From contig JAPPFH010000133.1 of NCBI GenBank assembly GCA_028875185.1, forward strand, positions 1 through 57,920: DNA of 57,920 nucleotides, written 5' to 3'. The DNA is from Chloroflexota bacterium. GTDB lineage: Bacteria > Chloroflexota > Anaerolineae > Aggregatilineales > Phototrophicaceae. Positions 4,443-57,920 of this stretch are shown here, piece after piece. The notes beneath the pieces were generated by a model that made no database searches, had not been told where the DNA came from, and saw nothing but the letters and a program-made list of their open reading frames with translations. The position numbers were made by a program, and so were the translations under genes. Each line of letters starts with the position of its first letter. Position 1 is the first letter of the stretch.

Positions 4443-4586
4443 TCGAAAACTGTAGGGGCGACCCAGTGGGTCGCCCGACGGAGCGCAAAAGATGCAGGGG
4501 CGCCCCATCGGGGCGCCCGAAATCGCCCAACAAAACACGTGCTTTGCGACGAAATTCTGCTCGCCGCAAAACTGTCCTGTCCTCAG
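4443..4586 (+). mobile_element. B element copy with two C palindromes
   Basis: Shares with the copy at 32235-32402 the stretch from TCGAAAACTGTAGGGGCG to the right end ACTGTCCT...CTCAG, including the AT-richer middle CGACGAAATTCTGCTCGC. It carries two C palindromes: 4452-4477 (inner ACCCAGTGGGT) and 4494-4519 (inner CCCCATCGGGG). It lies between the aminotransferase (start 4335) and the glycosidase-like gene (start 4708). No target duplication can be recognised at its ends. Confidence 0.65.
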
Positions 4587-8147: not shown

Positions 8148-8230
8148 GGCGGGATGGTGGAATGGCAGACACGGGCGCCTTAAAAGCGCCTGCCCGAAAG
8201 GGCGTGAGGGTTCGAGCCCCTCTCCCGCTA
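8148..8230 (+). tRNA. tRNA-Leu (anticodon UAA)
   Basis: An 83-base type II tRNA. The acceptor stem GGCGGGA pairs with TCCCGCT (one G-U pair) and is followed by discriminator A, the usual leucine identity base. The anticodon stem GGCGC/GCGCC holds loop CTTAAAA, giving UAA, which reads UUA and UUG. The long variable arm GCCCGAAAGGGC and the T arm GAGGG-TTCGAGC-CCCTC are complete. CCA is not encoded. Element A lies 14 bases downstream of the 3' end. Confidence 0.95.
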
Positions 8231-8244
8231 CTTGCCAGCGCCTC

Positions 8245-8467
8245 GGAAGTGGTGAATTTTATCGATACCGCAAAAACCCCCATCCCCCGGCCCCTTGCCG
8301 TAGTGCAGTGTCTACGCGCACCCCACAAGGAGGGAAGGGGAGTCTTCCAAGCGCTTTGGCAGTATGCAAGCCCCTCCCTCATTTTGGGGTCGCGTAGACA
8401 CCGACCCGCCGGGGAGGGGTTTGGGGTGGGGGTAATGCAGCGAGTATCCAGCAAATTCACCACTCCC
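8245..8467 (+). mobile_element. Element A, copy 1 (MITE-like, 223 bp) beside tRNA-Leu
   Basis: Inverted ends GGAAGTGGTGAATTT (8245-8259) and AAATTCACCACTCCC (8453-8467) match at 14 of 15 positions. The direct repeat GCGCCTC flanks it at 8238-8244 and 8468-8474, read as a 7-bp target duplication. The interior has no gene and forms a long imperfect hairpin, with GTGTCTACGCG facing CGCGTAGACAC and C-rich tracts facing G-rich tracts. It is related to copies at 32126-32548 and from 57797 onward. It has no transposase and would have to be moved in trans. Confidence 0.85.
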
Positions 8468-8481
8468 GCGCCTCCCTTCAA

Positions 8482-31165: not shown

Positions 31166-31283
31166 CGGCAGCCAACCCCTCCCCCGGCCCCCTCCCCGAA
31201 GCATCAGGGAGGGGGGAGTTGATCGAAAGAGCGGGAGGATTTCAGGGCGATTTCTCAAGTAGCCCGCTGGTATACTGAATGAT

Positions 31284-31309
31284 GTAGGGGCGACCCGGCG
31301 GGTCGCCCA
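31284..31309 (+). repeat. C palindrome
   Basis: GTAGGGGCG frame with inner ACCCGGCGGGT. It lies 33 bases ahead of the oxidoreductase ATG. A C-rich/G-rich tract reminiscent of element A's interior lies just upstream (about 31170-31220) without recognisable ends. Confidence 0.8.
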
Positions 31310-31341
31310 CGAACAAGAAAGACATAACCAGGAAACATTCG

Positions 31342-31968: not shown

Positions 31969-32094
31969 AGCTGGTATTCGACGCTGCCTTTCAACACATA
32001 GCGCGCAGAAACCACAGAGAATTGCAGGGGCGGCCGGCGGTCATTGTCTACGCGACCTATCAGGTCGTCCGCTTGCTTTCGGAATATCATTCGA

Positions 32095-32120
32095 CGGGCG
32101 TTTCAGCGAAACGCCCCTAC
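32095..32120 (-). repeat. C palindrome next to element A copy 2
   Basis: Reversed frame with inner GTTTCAGCGAAAC, which is the same inner palindrome as the copy at 28338 apart from the centre. The left target duplication of element A copy 2 (TACATCTT, 32118-32125) overlaps its last three bases, so A inserted at the edge of this palindrome. Confidence 0.8.
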
Positions 32121-32125
32121 ATCTT

Positions 32126-32548
32126 GGGTGTGGTGAATTTTATCGATACCGCAAAAACCCCCATCCCCGAAGGTCTATGTCTACGTGACCCGGCCCCTTG
32201 CCGTAGTGCAGTGTCCACGCGCACCCCACAAGGACGGACGACAGGACAGGTTTGGTCTAATCGAAAATTTTTGGCCCAAGTTAGACTTTAAAAGCATCTA
32301 TCCTGGCGAAAACTGTAGGGGCGACCCACTGGGTCGCCCGAAAAAGCCCAAGAAAACACGTAATTTGCGACGAAATTCTGCTCGCAGCAAAACTGTCCTC
32401 AGCCCACAAGGAGGAAAGGGGAGTCTTTCAAGCGCTTTGGCAGTAAGTAAGCCCCTCCCTCATTTTGGGGTCGCGTAGACACTGACCCGTCGGGGAGGGG
32501 TTTGGGGTGGGGGCAAAGCAGCGAGTATCCAGCAAATTCACAACACCC
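32126..32548 (+). mobile_element. Element A, copy 2, interrupted by a B element
   Basis: Ends GGGTGTGGTGAATTT and AAATTCACAACACCC (14 of 15 match when inverted) are flanked by an exact 8-bp duplication TACATCTT at 32118-32125 and 32549-32556. The interior matches copy 1 but carries the extra GAAGGTCTATGTCTACGTGA stretch also found in copy 3, and is broken at 32235 by a B element. Without B and its duplication the element would be about 245 bp. Confidence 0.9.
32235..32402 (+). mobile_element. B element nested in element A
   Basis: A 168-bp insertion bounded by an exact 10-bp duplication CCCACAAGGA (32225-32234 and 32403-32412) that occurs only once in the intact A copies. Its left part contains ACAGGACAGGTTTGG and its right end is AAAACTGTCCTCAG, so AGGACAG is near both ends in inverted orientation. 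It contains a C palindrome at 32315-32340 (inner ACCCACTGGGT). Related copies lie at 2829-2920 and 4443-4586. No open reading frame. Confidence 0.85.
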
Positions 32549-32630
32549 TACATCTTTCATTTGTTGCAGCTTCACTCTTAACGCGCTAAAGTCTGGCAAG
32601 CTTCGATTGCAATTGCGGCGGGACATCCTC

Positions 32631-40000: not shown

Positions 40001-40035
40001 AGATCTTTTGCACTAAGCGTATGAAAGGAAAACTT

Positions 40036-41292
40036 ATGAATAAGGCACGTCAATTGTTCGTACTGCTTCTGATTGTCAGCGTGCTTGTCGGCGCCGGGAC
40101 AGTATCGGCGCAGGACGATGTCACCCTGACGATCTGGACCTTCGGCTCTTTCTTCACCGATTTCTACGAAGGCATTGAAGCCGACTACAAAGAAATCGCG
40201 CCTCACGTCAGCATCGTGGTCGAAGAGATCCCGTATGGGCAGCTCTACGACAACTTGCAAGGCGCCATTGTTGCCGGCGTTGGCGCGCCCGATATCGTTG
40301 ATGTGGAGCAAGGCGTCATCAGCCGCTTCCTCAAAGGCGAGCCCGGTCTGATCGCGCTGAACGACCTGATCGCGCCATACGAAGACGACTACATCATGGC
40401 CAAGACCGGCTTGTACGCCCATCAGGGTACCATTTTCGGCATTGACCACTGCCTCTGCCCGGTCGTCTTGTACTATCGGCACGACATCTTCGCTGACGCC
40501 GGCATTGAAATGCCCATCGCCACCTGGGACGAATTTGTCGAGGCGTCCGCGGCGCTGACCGAACAGGGCATCGCGGCGCTTACCTTGTCCGACCGCAGCT
40601 GGGGCGACTTCTATATTCTGCTGCTGCAATCTGGCAGCCCCGGTTTCTTCGATGCCGAGGGCAATGTGATCGTCGACAGCCCTGAGACGATCGCCCTCTT
40701 GGAATGGTATCTCGGCTTGCTCGAGAGCGGCGTTGCCATTGCCCCGGGCGATTCGCAAAGCATTTATGGGCTGATGGCCGAAGGCAAAATAGCGGCCACG
40801 GCCGGCGCCGATTGGTACGGCGGCTTCATCAAGAACAATGTCGCCGATACCGAGGGGCTCTGGCGCGCGGCGCCCCTGCCCGCTTTTGAAGCAGGCGGCG
40901 CCCGCACCAGCACACACGGCGGCACCGCCTACTCGATAACGCAGCAGAGCGAGCATAAGGACGAGGCTTGGGCATTCATTGAATTCGCGCTGTTCGATGA
41001 GGACAACAAGATCTTCGAATTCGAGGTTAACAACCTGCTGCCGCCCGTGCTCTCGCATCTGGATAACGAAGCGCTGCTGGGTCCCGACCCTTACTTTGAC
41101 AACCAGTCGCTCGGCGAGCTTTTCCTTGAACTGGCGCCGGAAGTGCCGCATCAAGTGCGCGGTCCCTGGTTCGATGAAGCCAGCACGCTGGTAGGCAACG
41201 CTATATTCGAAGCCGCCCAAGGCGAGAAGACGGCCGAGCAGGCGCTGAAAGACGCAGCTGAAGAACTGCGCCGCGCGATCGATTTCGGTTAG
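40036..41292 (+). CDS. Sugar-type ABC substrate-binding protein, cassette 1
   Basis: A 418-residue family 1 extracellular solute-binding protein. Signal peptide residues 1-24 (FVLLLIVSVLVGAGTVSA, cleavage before QDD). The mature start VTLTIWTFGSFFTDFYEGIEADYKE is typical of carbohydrate binders; GGTAYSITQQSEHKDEAWAFIEF is the usual late motif. No lipobox Cys. The protein is a close paralogue of 44348-45604. AGGA lies about 8 bases before ATG 40036. Ligand not determinable. Confidence 0.9.
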   Translation: MNKARQLFVLLLIVSVLVGAGTVSAQDDVTLTIWTFGSFFTDFYEGIEADYKEIAPHVSIVVEEIPYGQLYDNLQGAIVAGVGAPDIVDVEQGVISRFLKGEPGLIALNDLIAPYEDDYIMAKTGLYAHQGTIFGIDHCLCPVVLYYRHDIFADAGIEMPIATWDEFVEASAALTEQGIAALTLSDRSWGDFYILLLQSGSPGFFDAEGNVIVDSPETIALLEWYLGLLESGVAIAPGDSQSIYGLMAEGKIAATAGADWYGGFIKNNVADTEGLWRAAPLPAFEAGGARTSTHGGTAYSITQQSEHKDEAWAFIEFALFDEDNKIFEFEVNNLLPPVLSHLDNEALLGPDPYFDNQSLGELFLELAPEVPHQVRGPWFDEASTLVGNAIFEAAQGEKTAEQALKDAAEELRRAIDFG

Positions 41293-41321
41293 GGCCAAAC
41301 GCATATCACAAATGTGAAGAC

Positions 41322-41394
41322 GTAGGGGCGACATATTATGTCGCCCGCCTGTCATGGTTCTGATGTTTCGGGCGACCTGATAGGTCGCCCCTAC
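41322..41394. repeat. Inverted pair of C palindromes between binding protein and permease genes
   Basis: 41322-41347 (plus; inner GACATATTATGTC) and 41369-41394 (minus; inner GACCTGATAGGTC) separated by 21 bases. The outer frames are mutually complementary, so the block can form one long stem or two hairpins. It sits after the binding protein stop inside an operon, the position of the REP sequences between malE and malF in E. coli that protect upstream mRNA. Confidence 0.8.
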
Positions 41395-41424
41395 ATTGGT
41401 CATATCGGGATGAGGACCTGAGTC

Positions 41425-42342
41425 GTGAGCAGCGCATCAATCGTGAAAGACCGCGGCTTGCGCGCTTGGTGGAGCCGCTCCGAGCGCAAGGTCGTGCCTT
41501 ATGTCTTTATCTCGCCCTTCTATATTCTCTTCATCGTCTTCTCGGTGGGACCGCTGATCTACGCCCTCTACCTCAGCTTGCACCGCTGGCCCGGCACCGG
41601 TCCCATGCGGCACGTCGGCTTGGGCAACTATACCTACCTGGCGGGCGACCCGGTCTTCCTCAAGTCACTATGGAACACCGTGTACTACGCCATTGGCGCT
41701 TTTCTCTTCATCTTGCCGCTGGCGCTCGTTTTGGCGCTGCTGATCAACTCGACGCTGATTCGTATCAAGAGCCTTTTCCGCATCGGCTACTTCCTGCCGA
41801 TTCTGACCAGCACGGTCGCCGCCACCATTATGTTCCTGCTCATCTTCAACAATGAATTCGGCTTGATTAACCAGGGCTTGGCGTCGCTGGGCATCCCGGC
41901 GCTGAAATGGCTCGACGAAGAGCTGGTCAAGATATCGGTGCTGGCGATCGTGACCTGGCGCTATACCGGCATCAACGTCTTGTATTTCCTCACTGGCTTG
42001 CAGAGCATCCCGCCCGAGCTCTACGAAGCGGCGCAGGTGGACGGCGCTGGAACCTGGGCGCAATTCCGCTACGTTACTATCCCGCAGCTGCGCCCCATCG
42101 CGCTATTCGTCGGCGTGGTGACGATGATCGGCTCCTTTCAACTCTTCGCCGAGCCGCTGCTGCTGGCGAACGGCGGACCCAACGACTCCAGCCTGACCAT
42201 CGCCAACTATCTCTACCGCATGGGCTTCACCAACGCCAAGCTCGGTTACGGCTCGGCCATCGGTTGGGTGCTGGCGCTGATCATCTTCGGCTTGTCCTTC
42301 ATCCAGCTCGCTCTCTTCGGCGCCTTCAGGAAGGAAGACTGA
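41425..42342 (+). CDS. Sugar ABC permease (MalF/UgpA type), cassette 1
   Basis: A 305-residue permease with six helices and EAA loop EAAQVDGAGTWAQFRYVTIPQL. N terminus VVPYVFISPFYILFIVFSVGPLIYALYLSL is typical of the UgpA group. GTG 41425 with GAGGA about 10 bases upstream. About 24 substitutions separate it from its paralogue at 45781 by my count. The next permease starts 4 bases after its stop. No ATPase is encoded in the cassette. Confidence 0.92.
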   Translation: MSSASIVKDRGLRAWWSRSERKVVPYVFISPFYILFIVFSVGPLIYALYLSLHRWPGTGPMRHVGLGNYTYLAGDPVFLKSLWNTVYYAIGAFLFILPLALVLALLINSTLIRIKSLFRIGYFLPILTSTVAATIMFLLIFNNEFGLINQGLASLGIPALKWLDEELVKISVLAIVTWRYTGINVLYFLTGLQSIPPELYEAAQVDGAGTWAQFRYVTIPQLRPIALFVGVVTMIGSFQLFAEPLLLANGGPNDSSLTIANYLYRMGFTNAKLGYGSAIGWVLALIIFGLSFIQLALFGAFRKED

Positions 42343-44305: not shown

Positions 44306-44347
44306 AATTAAACTTTGCGAAGCAACAGCTCTATAAGAGGTAAACAC

Positions 44348-45604
44348 ATGAATACCGCTCGTCGCATTTGTATAATGTTGTTGCTCGTCAGCATGCTCAC
44401 TGTCGCTGGATCCGCTGCGGCGCAAGATGAGGTCACGCTGACGATCTGGACCTTCGGCGCCTTCTTCACCGACTTGTACAAAGGCATTGAAGCCGACTAC
44501 AAGGAAATCGCGCCCCATGTCACCATTGAGGTCGAAGAGATCCCTTACGTGCAGCTCTACGACAACTTGCAGGGCGCATTTGTCGCCGGCGTTGGCGCGC
44601 CCGATATCGTCGATGTTGAGCAAGGCGTCATCAGCCGCTTCCTCAAAGGCGAGCCCGGTCTTGTACCGCTGAATGACATGATTGCGCCTTACGAGGATGA
44701 CTACATCATGGCCAAGACCGCCTTGTACGCCCATCAGGGCGCCATCTACGGCATCGATCACTGCCTCTGCCCGGTCGTCCTTTACTATCAGCACGACATC
44801 TTCGCTGATGTCGGCATCGAGATGCCCATCGCCACCTGGGATGAATTTATCGAGGCCTCCGCGGCGCTGACGGAGCAGGGCATCGCGGCGCTCGTCTTGG
44901 ACGACCGCAGCTGGGGCGATTATTACATGCTGCTACTGCAATCGGGCAGCCCGGGCTTCTTTGACGCTGAAGGCAATGTGATAGTCGATTCGCCCGGGAA
45001 CATCGCCGTCCTGGAATGGTATCTCGGCTTGCTCGAAAGCGGTGTGGCGATTTCCACGGGCGATTTCTACGCCACCATGGGCTTAATGGCGGAGGGTAAG
45101 ATCGCCGCCGCTATTGGCGCTGACTGGTATGCCGGCACCTTGAAGAACGAATTGGCTGACGGCGCCGGTCTCTGGCGCGCGGCGCCCCTGCCTGCCTTTG
45201 AGGAAGGCGGCTCCCGCACTAGCACGCACGGCGGCACCGCCTATAGCATCACCACGCAGAGCGAGCATCCGGAAGAAGCCTGGGCTTTCATCGAATTCGC
45301 CATGTTCAACGAGGACAACAAAATCCTCGAATATCACGTGAATAACCTGCTGCCGCCCGTGCTGTCCCATCTGGACAACGAAGCGCTGCTGGCGCCTGAT
45401 CCCTACTTCGGCGATCAGAAGGTGGGCGAGCTCTTCCTTGAGCTGGCGCCGGAAGTGCCCTTCCAGGAGCGCGGTCCCTGGTTCAACGAAGCCACCGTTC
45501 TGGTGGGCAATGCCGTATTCGAAGCCACCCAAGGTGAGAAGACTGCCGAGCAAGCCTTGCAGGACGCCGCCGACGAACTGCGCCGGCAGATCGATTTCGG
45601 TTAG
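44348..45604 (+). CDS. Sugar-type ABC substrate-binding protein, cassette 2
   Basis: A 418-residue paralogue of 40036-41292 with the same length. The signal peptide (residues 1-24) has diverged more than the mature protein, which shares VTLTIWTFGAFFTDLYKGIEADYKE, GIDHCLCPVVLYY and EEGGSRTSTHGGTAYSIT. Substitutions in the binding-protein core could shift ligand choice. AGAGG precedes ATG 44348. No lipobox Cys in the signal region. Confidence 0.9.
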   Translation: MNTARRICIMLLLVSMLTVAGSAAAQDEVTLTIWTFGAFFTDLYKGIEADYKEIAPHVTIEVEEIPYVQLYDNLQGAFVAGVGAPDIVDVEQGVISRFLKGEPGLVPLNDMIAPYEDDYIMAKTALYAHQGAIYGIDHCLCPVVLYYQHDIFADVGIEMPIATWDEFIEASAALTEQGIAALVLDDRSWGDYYMLLLQSGSPGFFDAEGNVIVDSPGNIAVLEWYLGLLESGVAISTGDFYATMGLMAEGKIAAAIGADWYAGTLKNELADGAGLWRAAPLPAFEEGGSRTSTHGGTAYSITTQSEHPEEAWAFIEFAMFNEDNKILEYHVNNLLPPVLSHLDNEALLAPDPYFGDQKVGELFLELAPEVPFQERGPWFNEATVLVGNAVFEATQGEKTAEQALQDAADELRRQIDFG

Positions 45605-45633
45605 GGCCAAACTCATATCACAAATGTGAAGAC

Positions 45634-45750
45634 GTAGGGGCGACATATTATGTCGCCCGCCTGTCATGGTTCTGATGTTTCGGGCGACCTGATAGGGCGC
45701 GTAGGTCGCGTAGACACTGACCGCCGACACCGCCCGCCGGTCGCCCCTAC
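45634..45750. repeat. Inverted C palindromes in cassette 2, second copy interrupted
   Basis: 45634-45659 is identical to the first palindrome of cassette 1. The second (45681-45750) is split after 16 bases by a 44-base insert (45697-45740), whose GGTCGCGTAGACACTGACC resembles the interior of element A near 8390. Apart from this insert and one base change, the spacer matches that of cassette 1 from the stop region to the permease start. Confidence 0.8.
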
Positions 45751-45780
45751 ATTGGTCATATCGGGATGAGGACCTGAGTC

Positions 45781-46698
45781 GTGAGCAGCGCATCAATCGT
45801 TGAAGACCGCGGCTTGCGCGCCTGGTGGAGTCGCTCACAGCGCAAAGTCCTGCCCTATGTCTTCATCTCGCCTTTCTACATCCTCTTCATCGTCTTCTCG
45901 GTGGGTCCGCTAATCTACGCCCTCTACCTGAGCCTGCATCGCTGGCCTGGCAGCGGTCCCATGCGTCATGTGGGCTTGGGCAACTATACCTACCTGGCCG
46001 GCGACCCGGTATTCCTCAAGTCGCTGTGGAACACCGTGTACTACGCTATCGGCGCTTTTCTGTTTATCTTGCCGCTGGCGCTGCTGCTGGCGCTGCTGAT
46101 CAACTCGACGCTGATACGCATTAAGAGCCTTTTCCGCATCGGTTTCTTCCTGCCAATCCTCACCAGCACGGTGGCCGCCACCCTCATTTTCCTGATGATC
46201 TTCAACAACCAATTCGGTCTGATCAACCAAGGCTTGACGCTGCTGGGCATTCCGCCGGTCAAATGGCTGGACGAAGAACTGGTCAAGATCTCGGTGCTGG
46301 CAGTTGCCACCTGGCGCTACACTGGCATCAACGTCTTGTATTTCCTCACTGGCTTGCAAAGCATCCCGCCCGATCTGTATGAAGCGGCGCAGGTGGACGG
46401 CGCCGGCGCCTGGGCGCAATTCCGCTACGTTACTATCCCGCAGCTGCGCCCCATCGCGCTTTTCGTCGGCGTGGTGACGATGATCGGCTCCTTCCAATTC
46501 TTCGCCGAGCCGCTGATTCTCGCGAACGGCGGACCTAACGACGCCAGCCTGACCATCGCCAACTATCTTTACCGCATGGGCTTCACCAATGCCAAGCTGG
46601 GCTACGGCGCTTCCATCGGCTGGGTGCTGGCGCTGATCATCTTCGGCTTGTCCTTCATCCAGCTCTATCTCTTCGGCGCGTTCAGGAAGGAAGACTGA
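45781..46698 (+). CDS. Sugar ABC permease (MalF/UgpA type), cassette 2
   Basis: A 305-residue paralogue of 41425-42342 with GTG start, the same ribosome binding site and EAA loop EAAQVDGAGAWAQFRYVTIPQL. Most differences are conservative changes in membrane helices (V/L, Y/F, I/V). Confidence 0.92.
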   Translation: MSSASIVEDRGLRAWWSRSQRKVLPYVFISPFYILFIVFSVGPLIYALYLSLHRWPGSGPMRHVGLGNYTYLAGDPVFLKSLWNTVYYAIGAFLFILPLALLLALLINSTLIRIKSLFRIGFFLPILTSTVAATLIFLMIFNNQFGLINQGLTLLGIPPVKWLDEELVKISVLAVATWRYTGINVLYFLTGLQSIPPDLYEAAQVDGAGAWAQFRYVTIPQLRPIALFVGVVTMIGSFQFFAEPLILANGGPNDASLTIANYLYRMGFTNAKLGYGASIGWVLALIIFGLSFIQLYLFGAFRKED

Positions 46699-57796: not shown

Positions 57797-57920
57797 CGGA
57801 GTGGTGAATTATTGATAGCGCAAAAACCCCCATCCCCGAAGGTCTATGTCTACGTGACCCGGCCCCTTGCCGTAGTGCAGTGTCTACGCGCACCCCACAA
57901 GGAGGGAAGGGGAGTCTTTC
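57797..57920 (+). mobile_element. Element A, copy 3, cut by the window edge
   Basis: Begins CGGAGTGGTGAATT and continues through the copy 2-type interior (GAAGGTCTATGTCTACGTGA, then GTAGTGCAGTGTCTACGCGC) to the window end. The left end lies 16 bases upstream of the operon's TTGACA. Its right end and target duplication are outside the window. Confidence 0.8.

What the first reader, a model, noticed from the sequence alone, without database searches (positions are those of the whole stretch)
32118..32556. One small mobile element inserted into another, both with target duplications
Element A copy 2 has 15-bp inverted ends and an exact 8-bp duplication TACATCTT on both sides. Inside it, a 168-bp B element is bracketed by a 10-bp duplication CCCACAAGGA that is single in the uninterrupted A copies. 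This shows two distinct non-autonomous families, each mobile, and gives their order of arrival. No transposase is in the window, so both must be moved in trans. GG-starting ends with an 8-bp duplication resemble IS6-, ISL3- or IS256-type elements (inference).
Basis: partly seen in the sequence, partly recalled or inferred. Interest (0 to 1): 0.75.

Follow-up and report, generated by a model that had tools for sequence, protein, structure and literature searches.

The report
Nested mini-transposons carrying 22-letter insertions
One small mobile DNA element really does sit inside another here, and the outer one also carries even smaller, 22-letter pieces that appear to insert into the tips of DNA hairpins and would be among the smallest mobile-looking elements known.

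Summary
Observation confirmed. Element A (32126-32548) has 14/15-matching ends and an exact 8-bp duplication; element B (32235-32402, 168 bp) lies in it between exact 10-bp duplications. Both are high-copy miniature elements in this 158-contig draft genome. The genome has no DDE_Tnp_1 or Transposase_mut match. A likely parent of B sits in a same-genus genome: a 1,222-bp IS4-like insertion sequence with the same ends and an exact 10-bp duplication. A's parent was not found; IS256 was tested and not supported, IS6 and ISL3 were not tested.

This A copy also holds three 22-24-nt insertions ("mu": conserved 11-nt loop, covarying 4-bp stem, 3-nt tail). Mu makes no target duplication, and in 54 of 158 distinct sites it lies at the 3' edge of a hairpin loop. 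The window holds both an empty site (41370) and a doubly filled paralogue (45682). The exact 12-letter core occurs 184 times here and in 29 of 33 same-genus genomes, rarely outside. It resembles cyanobacterial "small dispersed repeats" (main paper recalled, not held). What moves mu is unknown.

The parts
32118..32125 (.). left 8-bp target duplication of A, TACATCTT
32126..32548 (+). element A copy 2 (miniature element, interrupted by B)
   Evidence: ends and duplication read; family size
32549..32556 (.). right 8-bp target duplication of A, TACATCTT
32169..32190 (-). mu insertion at A site 1 (22 nt, GGTC stem)
   Evidence: A copies without it
32203..32224 (-). mu insertion at A site 2 (22 nt, GTGC stem, one loop change)
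   Evidence: exact 22-nt difference to empty A copies
32468..32491 (+). mu insertion at A site 3 (24 nt, 5-bp GGGTC stem)
   Evidence: exact 24-nt difference for the same form in L066
32225..32234 (.). left 10-bp target duplication of B, CCCACAAGGA
32235..32402 (+). element B (168 bp; usual form 173 bp; ends CTGA(G/C)GACAGGACAG)
32403..32412 (.). right 10-bp target duplication of B, CCCACAAGGA
32315..32339 (+). GTAG-tagged hairpin inside B (REP-like)
   Evidence: GTAG tag as the REP hallmark in passages of PMC3733652
8245..8467 (+). A copy 1, uninterrupted by B, with 7-bp repeats GCGCCTC at 8238-8244 and 8468-8474 and mu at 8300-8321 (-) and 8387-8410 (+)
57798..57920 (+). A copy 3, cut by the contig end, with mu at 57838-57859 (-) and 57872-57893 (-)
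32036..32057 (-). mu in a hairpin just upstream of A copy 2
41370..41391 (.). empty hairpin site GGGCGACCTGATA|GGTCGCCCC
45695..45738 (+). 44-nt filling of the paralogous site: mu (45704-45725) inside another mu (45695-45703 + 45726-45738)

Best explanation
The locus is a three-layer nest. (1) A is a miniature inverted-repeat element that entered this site and duplicated 8 bp; its own transposase is unknown. (2) A carries three much smaller 22-24-nt insertions (mu) that are shared with other A copies, so at least some were in the A lineage before this copy was made; they left no duplication. (3) B is a miniature derivative of an IS4-like insertion sequence; a transposase of that type, acting in trans, cut it out and pasted it into the loop region of an A hairpin, duplicating 10 bp. 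Shown: anatomy, duplications, empty sites, copy numbers, a sister-genome insertion sequence with the ends and duplication length of B. Inferred: trans-mobilisation, and that the parent was once in this lineage or lies in sequence missing from the draft. For mu the most likely mechanism is insertion of a single-stranded hairpin (DNA or RNA) into the loop of another hairpin by an enzyme acting in trans; I put about 0.55 on that class and do not claim to know the enzyme.
For: Ends and duplications. B parent: L361, 1,222 bp, CTGAGGACAGGACAGGTTT at both ends, exact duplication CCCATAAAGA, 390-aa open frame with Y(2)R(3)E(6)K, Pfam DDE_Tnp_1 E 6e-10, NCBIfam IS4 model E 7e-35; a decayed 1,217-bp relative in L347. 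B hits the same A site in both orientations: same as the window in L032 and L045, opposite in L034, each with an exact 10-bp duplication. The B copies closest to the window's are L034 (95.7%, opposite orientation) and L033 (95.2%, outside A); the same-orientation composites are L032 93.3%, L045 85.3%, L053 79.6%, which favours separate hits. Mu: 336 against 11 control places with up to 1 mismatch; 12 of 23 distinct filled contexts differ from an empty relative by exactly 22 nt; stem covariation; hairpin-edge rule.
Against: A's parent was not found. The IS4 model score of the B parent (120.7) is under the curated cut-off (152). No DDE_Tnp_1 match in the own genome, though the draft is 93.8% complete and many contigs end inside A, so repeats may be missing. 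Mu alone is a weak hairpin: -2.1 kcal/mol as DNA, no better than shuffles (80 of 200 fold at least as well). 11 of 23 filled/empty differences are not 22 nt: 13 (five), 9 (one), 21 (two), 24, 15, 31. 104 of 158 distinct mu sites have no perfect hairpin of 6 bp or more at the element edge.
Confidence: 0.85

Rival explanations
1. A+B moved into this locus as one composite unit, so the nest says nothing about order of arrival here.
For: A ends flank the whole and carry an exact duplication; other A+B composites with B in the same site and orientation exist (L032, L045).
Against: The window's B is closer to copies in the opposite orientation (95.7%) or outside A (95.2%) than to the same-orientation composites (93.3, 85.3, 79.6%).
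Confidence: 0.25
2. Mu is not mobile: copies spread only with A, B and other repeats, and by template switching or tandem-unit slippage at hairpins; quasi-palindrome correction during replication makes the stems covary without selection.
For: Mu alone folds weakly; expansions by 9- and 13-nt half-units occur; many copies lie in repeats. Quasi-palindrome correction is recalled general knowledge, not tested.
Against: Exact 22-nt blocks in many unrelated hairpins, in a CACCGAG repeat and in itself, and a 24-nt block in a coding sequence; an 11-nt loop conserved while stems differ (15 fully paired stems); spread over a genus.
Confidence: 0.3
3. RAYT (REP-associated tyrosine transposase), a single-strand hairpin enzyme, moves mu.
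For: RAYT-like genes in 27 of 34 genus genomes, 3 in the own genome; best NCBIfam model REP_Tyr_transpos; host hairpins are often GTAG-tagged and mu is oriented 37 to 7 relative to the tag; no target duplication.
Against: Counts do not track: Spearman 0.31, p 0.077 over 34 genomes (0.42, p 0.014 only after dropping G033); G031 has 4 RAYT and 0 mu, G033 11 and 0; G009 has 0 RAYT and 80 mu, G024 0 and 61. The REP_Tyr model score 68.8 is under its cut-off of 80. Mu has GTAG in its loop, not next to its stem.
Confidence: 0.2
4. A belongs to IS256, IS6 or ISL3.
For: GG-starting ends and an 8-bp duplication (the resemblance is recalled).
Against: No Transposase_mut in the own genome, and no A ends paired around any of the 8 loci found in 6 of 34 genus genomes. 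IS6 and ISL3 were not tested.
Confidence: 0.25

Closest known systems
IS4-family insertion sequences and their miniature derivatives (for B)
   Same: About 10-bp duplications, Y(2)R(3)E(6)K motif and single-frame transposase, as given in passages of PMC2266710; the parent L361 and B share ends.
   Different: No subgroup of its Table 1 (passages seen) fits fully: CT ends go there with 9-bp duplications (IS10). The NCBIfam IS4 score is under the cut-off.
Miniature inverted-repeat elements in general (for A)
   Same: Short, no gene, terminal inverted repeats, target duplication, high copy number.
   Different: Parent unknown; modular inside because of mu insertions.
Small dispersed repeats (SDR) of Nostoc, Elhai et al. 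2008 (paper not held; content recalled)
   Same: Recalled: 21-27 nt, compensatory stem changes, found inside mini-transposons and inside themselves. Seen in a citing paper: SDR5 inserts precisely between the 3rd and 4th nucleotides of HIP1 (passage of PMC4390886); 'some 20 bp long ... might be mobile' (passage of PMC2884548).
   Different: Recalled as confined to cyanobacteria; here Chloroflexota. The SDR sequences could not be compared. The hairpin-edge target rule is, as far as I recall, not described for them.
GTAG-tagged REPs and RAYTs
   Same: Short hairpins in high copy; RAYT genes in the genus; GTAG repeats reported in Chloroflexi (passage of PMC3733652).
   Different: The host hairpins fit; mu does not, because its GTAG is in the loop and not beside the stem.

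Membership tests
Miniature derivative of an IS4-family element (B) | Ends shared with a full-length element | tested here: met
   L361 ends CTGAGGACAGGACAGGTTT on both sides; B ends CTGA(G/C)GACAGGACAG
Miniature derivative of an IS4-family element (B) | About 10-bp target duplication | tested here: met
   exact 10 bp in the window and in L361; 22 of 184 end pairs at 8 of 10 or more
Miniature derivative of an IS4-family element (B) | Y(2)R(3)E(6)K in the parent transposase | tested here: met
   YAMRNWQEQSFRDLK in L361; definition from passages of PMC2266710
Miniature derivative of an IS4-family element (B) | Score over the curated IS4 model cut-off | tested here: inconclusive
   E 7.4e-35, 120.7 bits against a cut-off of 152
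Miniature inverted-repeat element (A) | Terminal inverted repeats and target duplication in many copies | tested here: met
   16 of 33 at 7 of 8 or more against 63 of 3,300 shuffled; 236 against 0 end-pattern hits
IS256-type (A) | A Transposase_mut element with A ends | tested here: not met
   0 in the own genome; 8 loci in 6 of 34 genus genomes, none with paired A ends
IS6 or ISL3 type (A) | Matching transposase with A ends | not tested
Small dispersed repeats (SDR), as recalled | 21-27 nt unit | tested here: met
   22 nt (24 with a 5-bp stem)
Small dispersed repeats (SDR), as recalled | Compensatory stem changes | tested here: met
   76 distinct own-genome copies: three inner pairs 93, 88 and 89% Watson-Crick against shuffle maxima 62, 61 and 75%; next pair out 21% against mean 23%
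Small dispersed repeats (SDR), as recalled | Found within mini-transposons and within itself | tested here: met
   (62 of 220 distinct contexts in or beside another mu)
Small dispersed repeats (SDR), as recalled | Sequence kinship with SDR1-8 | not testable with these tools
   paper not held
REP (GTAG-tagged hairpin), for mu | GTAG at one end beside the stem | tested here: not met
   GTAG lies in the loop of mu

The most novel reading that the evidence does not exclude
Mu is a genuine mobile unit of 22 nt: a hairpin with a fixed 11-nt loop, free stem and 3-nt tail, which inserts without duplication at the 3' edge of 5-nt loops of other hairpins and into its own loop, in one genus (and near kin) of Chloroflexota; a cyanobacterial-SDR-like way of life that arose or persists far from cyanobacteria, moved through a single-stranded DNA or RNA intermediate.
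Probability: 0.5. Interest if true: 0.8.

Novelty: new variant of a known kind. Interest (0 to 1): 0.6.

Why it matters
The A/B nest itself is a clean but ordinary MITE-in-MITE case, now with a likely parent for B. Mu would matter more: precise gains of 22 nt at a predictable hairpin position, in many species of one genus, make the old open question of how such very small repeats move directly testable, and show that hairpin loops act as insertion targets for elements of very different size (B of 168-173 bp also picks hairpin loops).

Tried and rejected
PF01609 in the own genome: nothing. TIR pairs 650-3,500 bp apart with a duplication in the loci then held: none for A or B. PF01797 in the genus: mostly weak matches inside 640-780-aa frames (frames of 450 aa or more printed for three of them, look unrelated: beside a DNA polymerase I-like frame; my reading, no family scan), but it led to the true RAYT-like genes. 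PF00872 for A: no paired ends. A-end pattern in the genus: more miniature copies, no 1-3-kb pair seen in the listed places; the list was cut. Rfam on the window: 0 families. Viral contigs with the 19-letter mu pattern: 0. In one search the counts at offsets 0 and 1 (33 and 38) overlap, so I use the 54 of 158 instead. The mu sample is biased: loci were fetched with the GGTC stem in the pattern, and loci with the loop plus its closing G; the covariation figures therefore come from the own-genome loci, where the stem beyond the first pair was not part of the pattern; 34 distinct relatives' copies (L111-L140) give the same direction (82% for each of three pairs against shuffle maxima 65, 82 and 74%; the middle pair only equals its shuffle maximum). 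Literature: Elhai 2008 not held; searches showed no paper in this library that, by title or listing, describes mu or SDR-like elements in Chloroflexota; subscription papers are missing from it. Sponge origin of the named records is recalled from their isolate names and comes from no call.

Full report
1. A copy 2 (32126-32548) has near-perfect inverted ends and an exact 8-bp duplication; B (32235-32402) interrupts it between exact 10-bp copies of CCCACAAGGA, which is single in the other two A copies of the window. The window is contig C13 of a 4,372,157-base, 158-contig draft and copy 3 runs off its end.

2. Copy number. A: BLAST listed 40 places, with 40 of 194 first-look candidates scored; the A-end pattern has 236 hits against 0 control and a longer form 146 against 5. 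B: 44 places, 40 of 316 candidates scored; end pattern 106 against 0. Duplications exceed shuffles: A 16 of 33 against 63 of 3,300, B 22 of 184 against 7 of 3,680. Many contigs start or end inside A, so the assembly breaks at it.

3. B's parent. The own genome has no DDE_Tnp_1 match; 16 of 34 genus genomes do. Of the 30 loci fetched from that search, two have B ends around the frame: L361 (1,222 bp, exact 10-bp duplication CCCATAAAGA, 390-aa frame) and L347 (1,217 bp, broken frames, no duplication). The L361 protein is IS4-like: NCBIfam IS4 E 7e-35, although under that model's cut-off, and Y(2)R(3)E(6)K present (definition in passages of PMC2266710). The target CCCATAAAGAGGG resembles CCCACAAGGAGGG of A. 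Other B duplications (TCATTTTGGG, CTCTTTATGG, CGAGGCATCA) also lie between C-runs and G-runs, that is in hairpin loops (my reading).

4. Order of events. B occupies the same A site in both orientations in other copies, so the site was hit more than once. The window's B is nearest to copies in other settings, favouring a separate hit, but a composite move into this locus is not excluded.

5. The third layer. Aligning A copies shows blocks present in some and absent in others. One search revealed a shared core CGTAGACA in them, and elsewhere. The unit is 22 nt: 4-nt stem, 11-nt loop GCGTAGACACT, 4-nt stem, 3-nt tail; a 24-nt form has a 5-bp stem. Genome-wide, GCGTAGACACTG with up to 1 mismatch occurs 336 times against 11 for the reversed control, exactly 184 times against 1.

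6. Covariation. In 76 distinct own-genome copies the pairs -3/11, -4/12 and -5/13 are Watson-Crick in 93, 88 and 89%, against shuffle maxima of 62, 61 and 75% (2,000 shuffles). The outermost four pairs tested beyond -6/14 and -6/14 itself show nothing. The first pair, C-G, hardly varies. The stem is exactly 4 bp. Folding energy alone does not stand out, and quasi-palindrome correction could give covariation without function.

7. Empty and filled sites. In the window, two paralogous transporter operons (solute-binding protein then permease) carry the same hairpin: empty at 41370, filled at 45682 with 44 nt, which is one mu inside another; 81 letters to the left and 62 to the right are identical. 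L285, from a named Chloroflexi record, has the single mu there. Over 23 distinct filled contexts, the length difference to an empty relative is 22 in 12, 13 in 5, 21 in 2, and 9, 15, 24 and 31 in one each. The 9- and 13-nt steps are the two halves into which self-insertion cuts mu. No target duplication is seen. In L206 a 24-nt mu lies inside an open reading frame, adding eight codons relative to L128 (the enzyme looks like a cysteine-synthase-type protein, recalled).

8. Target rule. Of 220 distinct contexts, 62 are in or beside another mu; of the other 158, 54 have a perfect host hairpin of 6 bp or more whose 3' arm starts 0-1 nt after mu, 31 of them with exactly 5 loop letters left before mu. 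With 7 bp required, no copy has the 5' arm ending 0-3 nt before mu (mirror test). In a looser test (one mismatch allowed), arms of 8 or more flank 138 of 275 copies against 25 of 275 random positions. Self-insertion also falls 5 nt after the stem (GGTC GCGTA|GACACT). Relative to the CGCCCCTAC tag the orientation is 37 to 7.

9. Distribution. The exact 12-letter core is in 29 of 33 same-genus genomes (up to 176 copies; none in G007, G022, G031, G033), in 4 of 15 other genomes of the family (8 in G038, 3 in G046, single in two) and single in 6 of 32 of the order. The one G038 copy read has a GGGC/GCCC stem. That the window's host is Chloroflexota is an inference from this.

10. What moves mu. 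RAYT-like genes are in 27 of 34 genus genomes and 3 in the own genome, and host hairpins are often GTAG-tagged as REPs are (PMC3733652 passages). But RAYT and mu counts correlate only weakly and several genomes contradict it. An RNA route, recalled as the suggestion for SDRs, could not be tested. I commit to single-strand hairpin insertion in trans as the likeliest class (about 0.55), enzyme unknown.

11. Verdict. The given finding is correct and of a known kind (nested miniature elements, B now tied to an IS4-like parent). The mu layer is a new variant of a known kind, closest to cyanobacterial SDRs, and carries most of the interest.

Noticed in passing
window 40020-41682 and 44332-46038: Two paralogous ABC-transporter blocks (solute-binding protein and permease) side by side, 78-91% alike, with PhyH-domain genes at 32.5 kb and 43.4 kb also duplicated.
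   Followed up: partly
window 4444-4578, 2829-2920, 31276-31320: Further GTAG-tagged hairpins and B-end fragments; two hairpins in tandem at 4444-4530.
   Followed up: partly
L296 1456-2307 (minus): RAYT-like gene preceded by a tandem repeat of hairpin units that is read into its open frame.
   Followed up: no
L333, L334, L348: Other DDE_Tnp_1 insertion sequences in the genus with ends CAGRGCAATCGCA and 9-10-bp duplications.
   Followed up: no
window 8148-8231: tRNA-Leu (taa) directly upstream of A copy 1.
   Followed up: no
L019, L020, L026: Near-identical pieces of A with two mu but another surrounding (…GCAGCAATGC), suggesting a further repeat family sharing A's middle.
   Followed up: no
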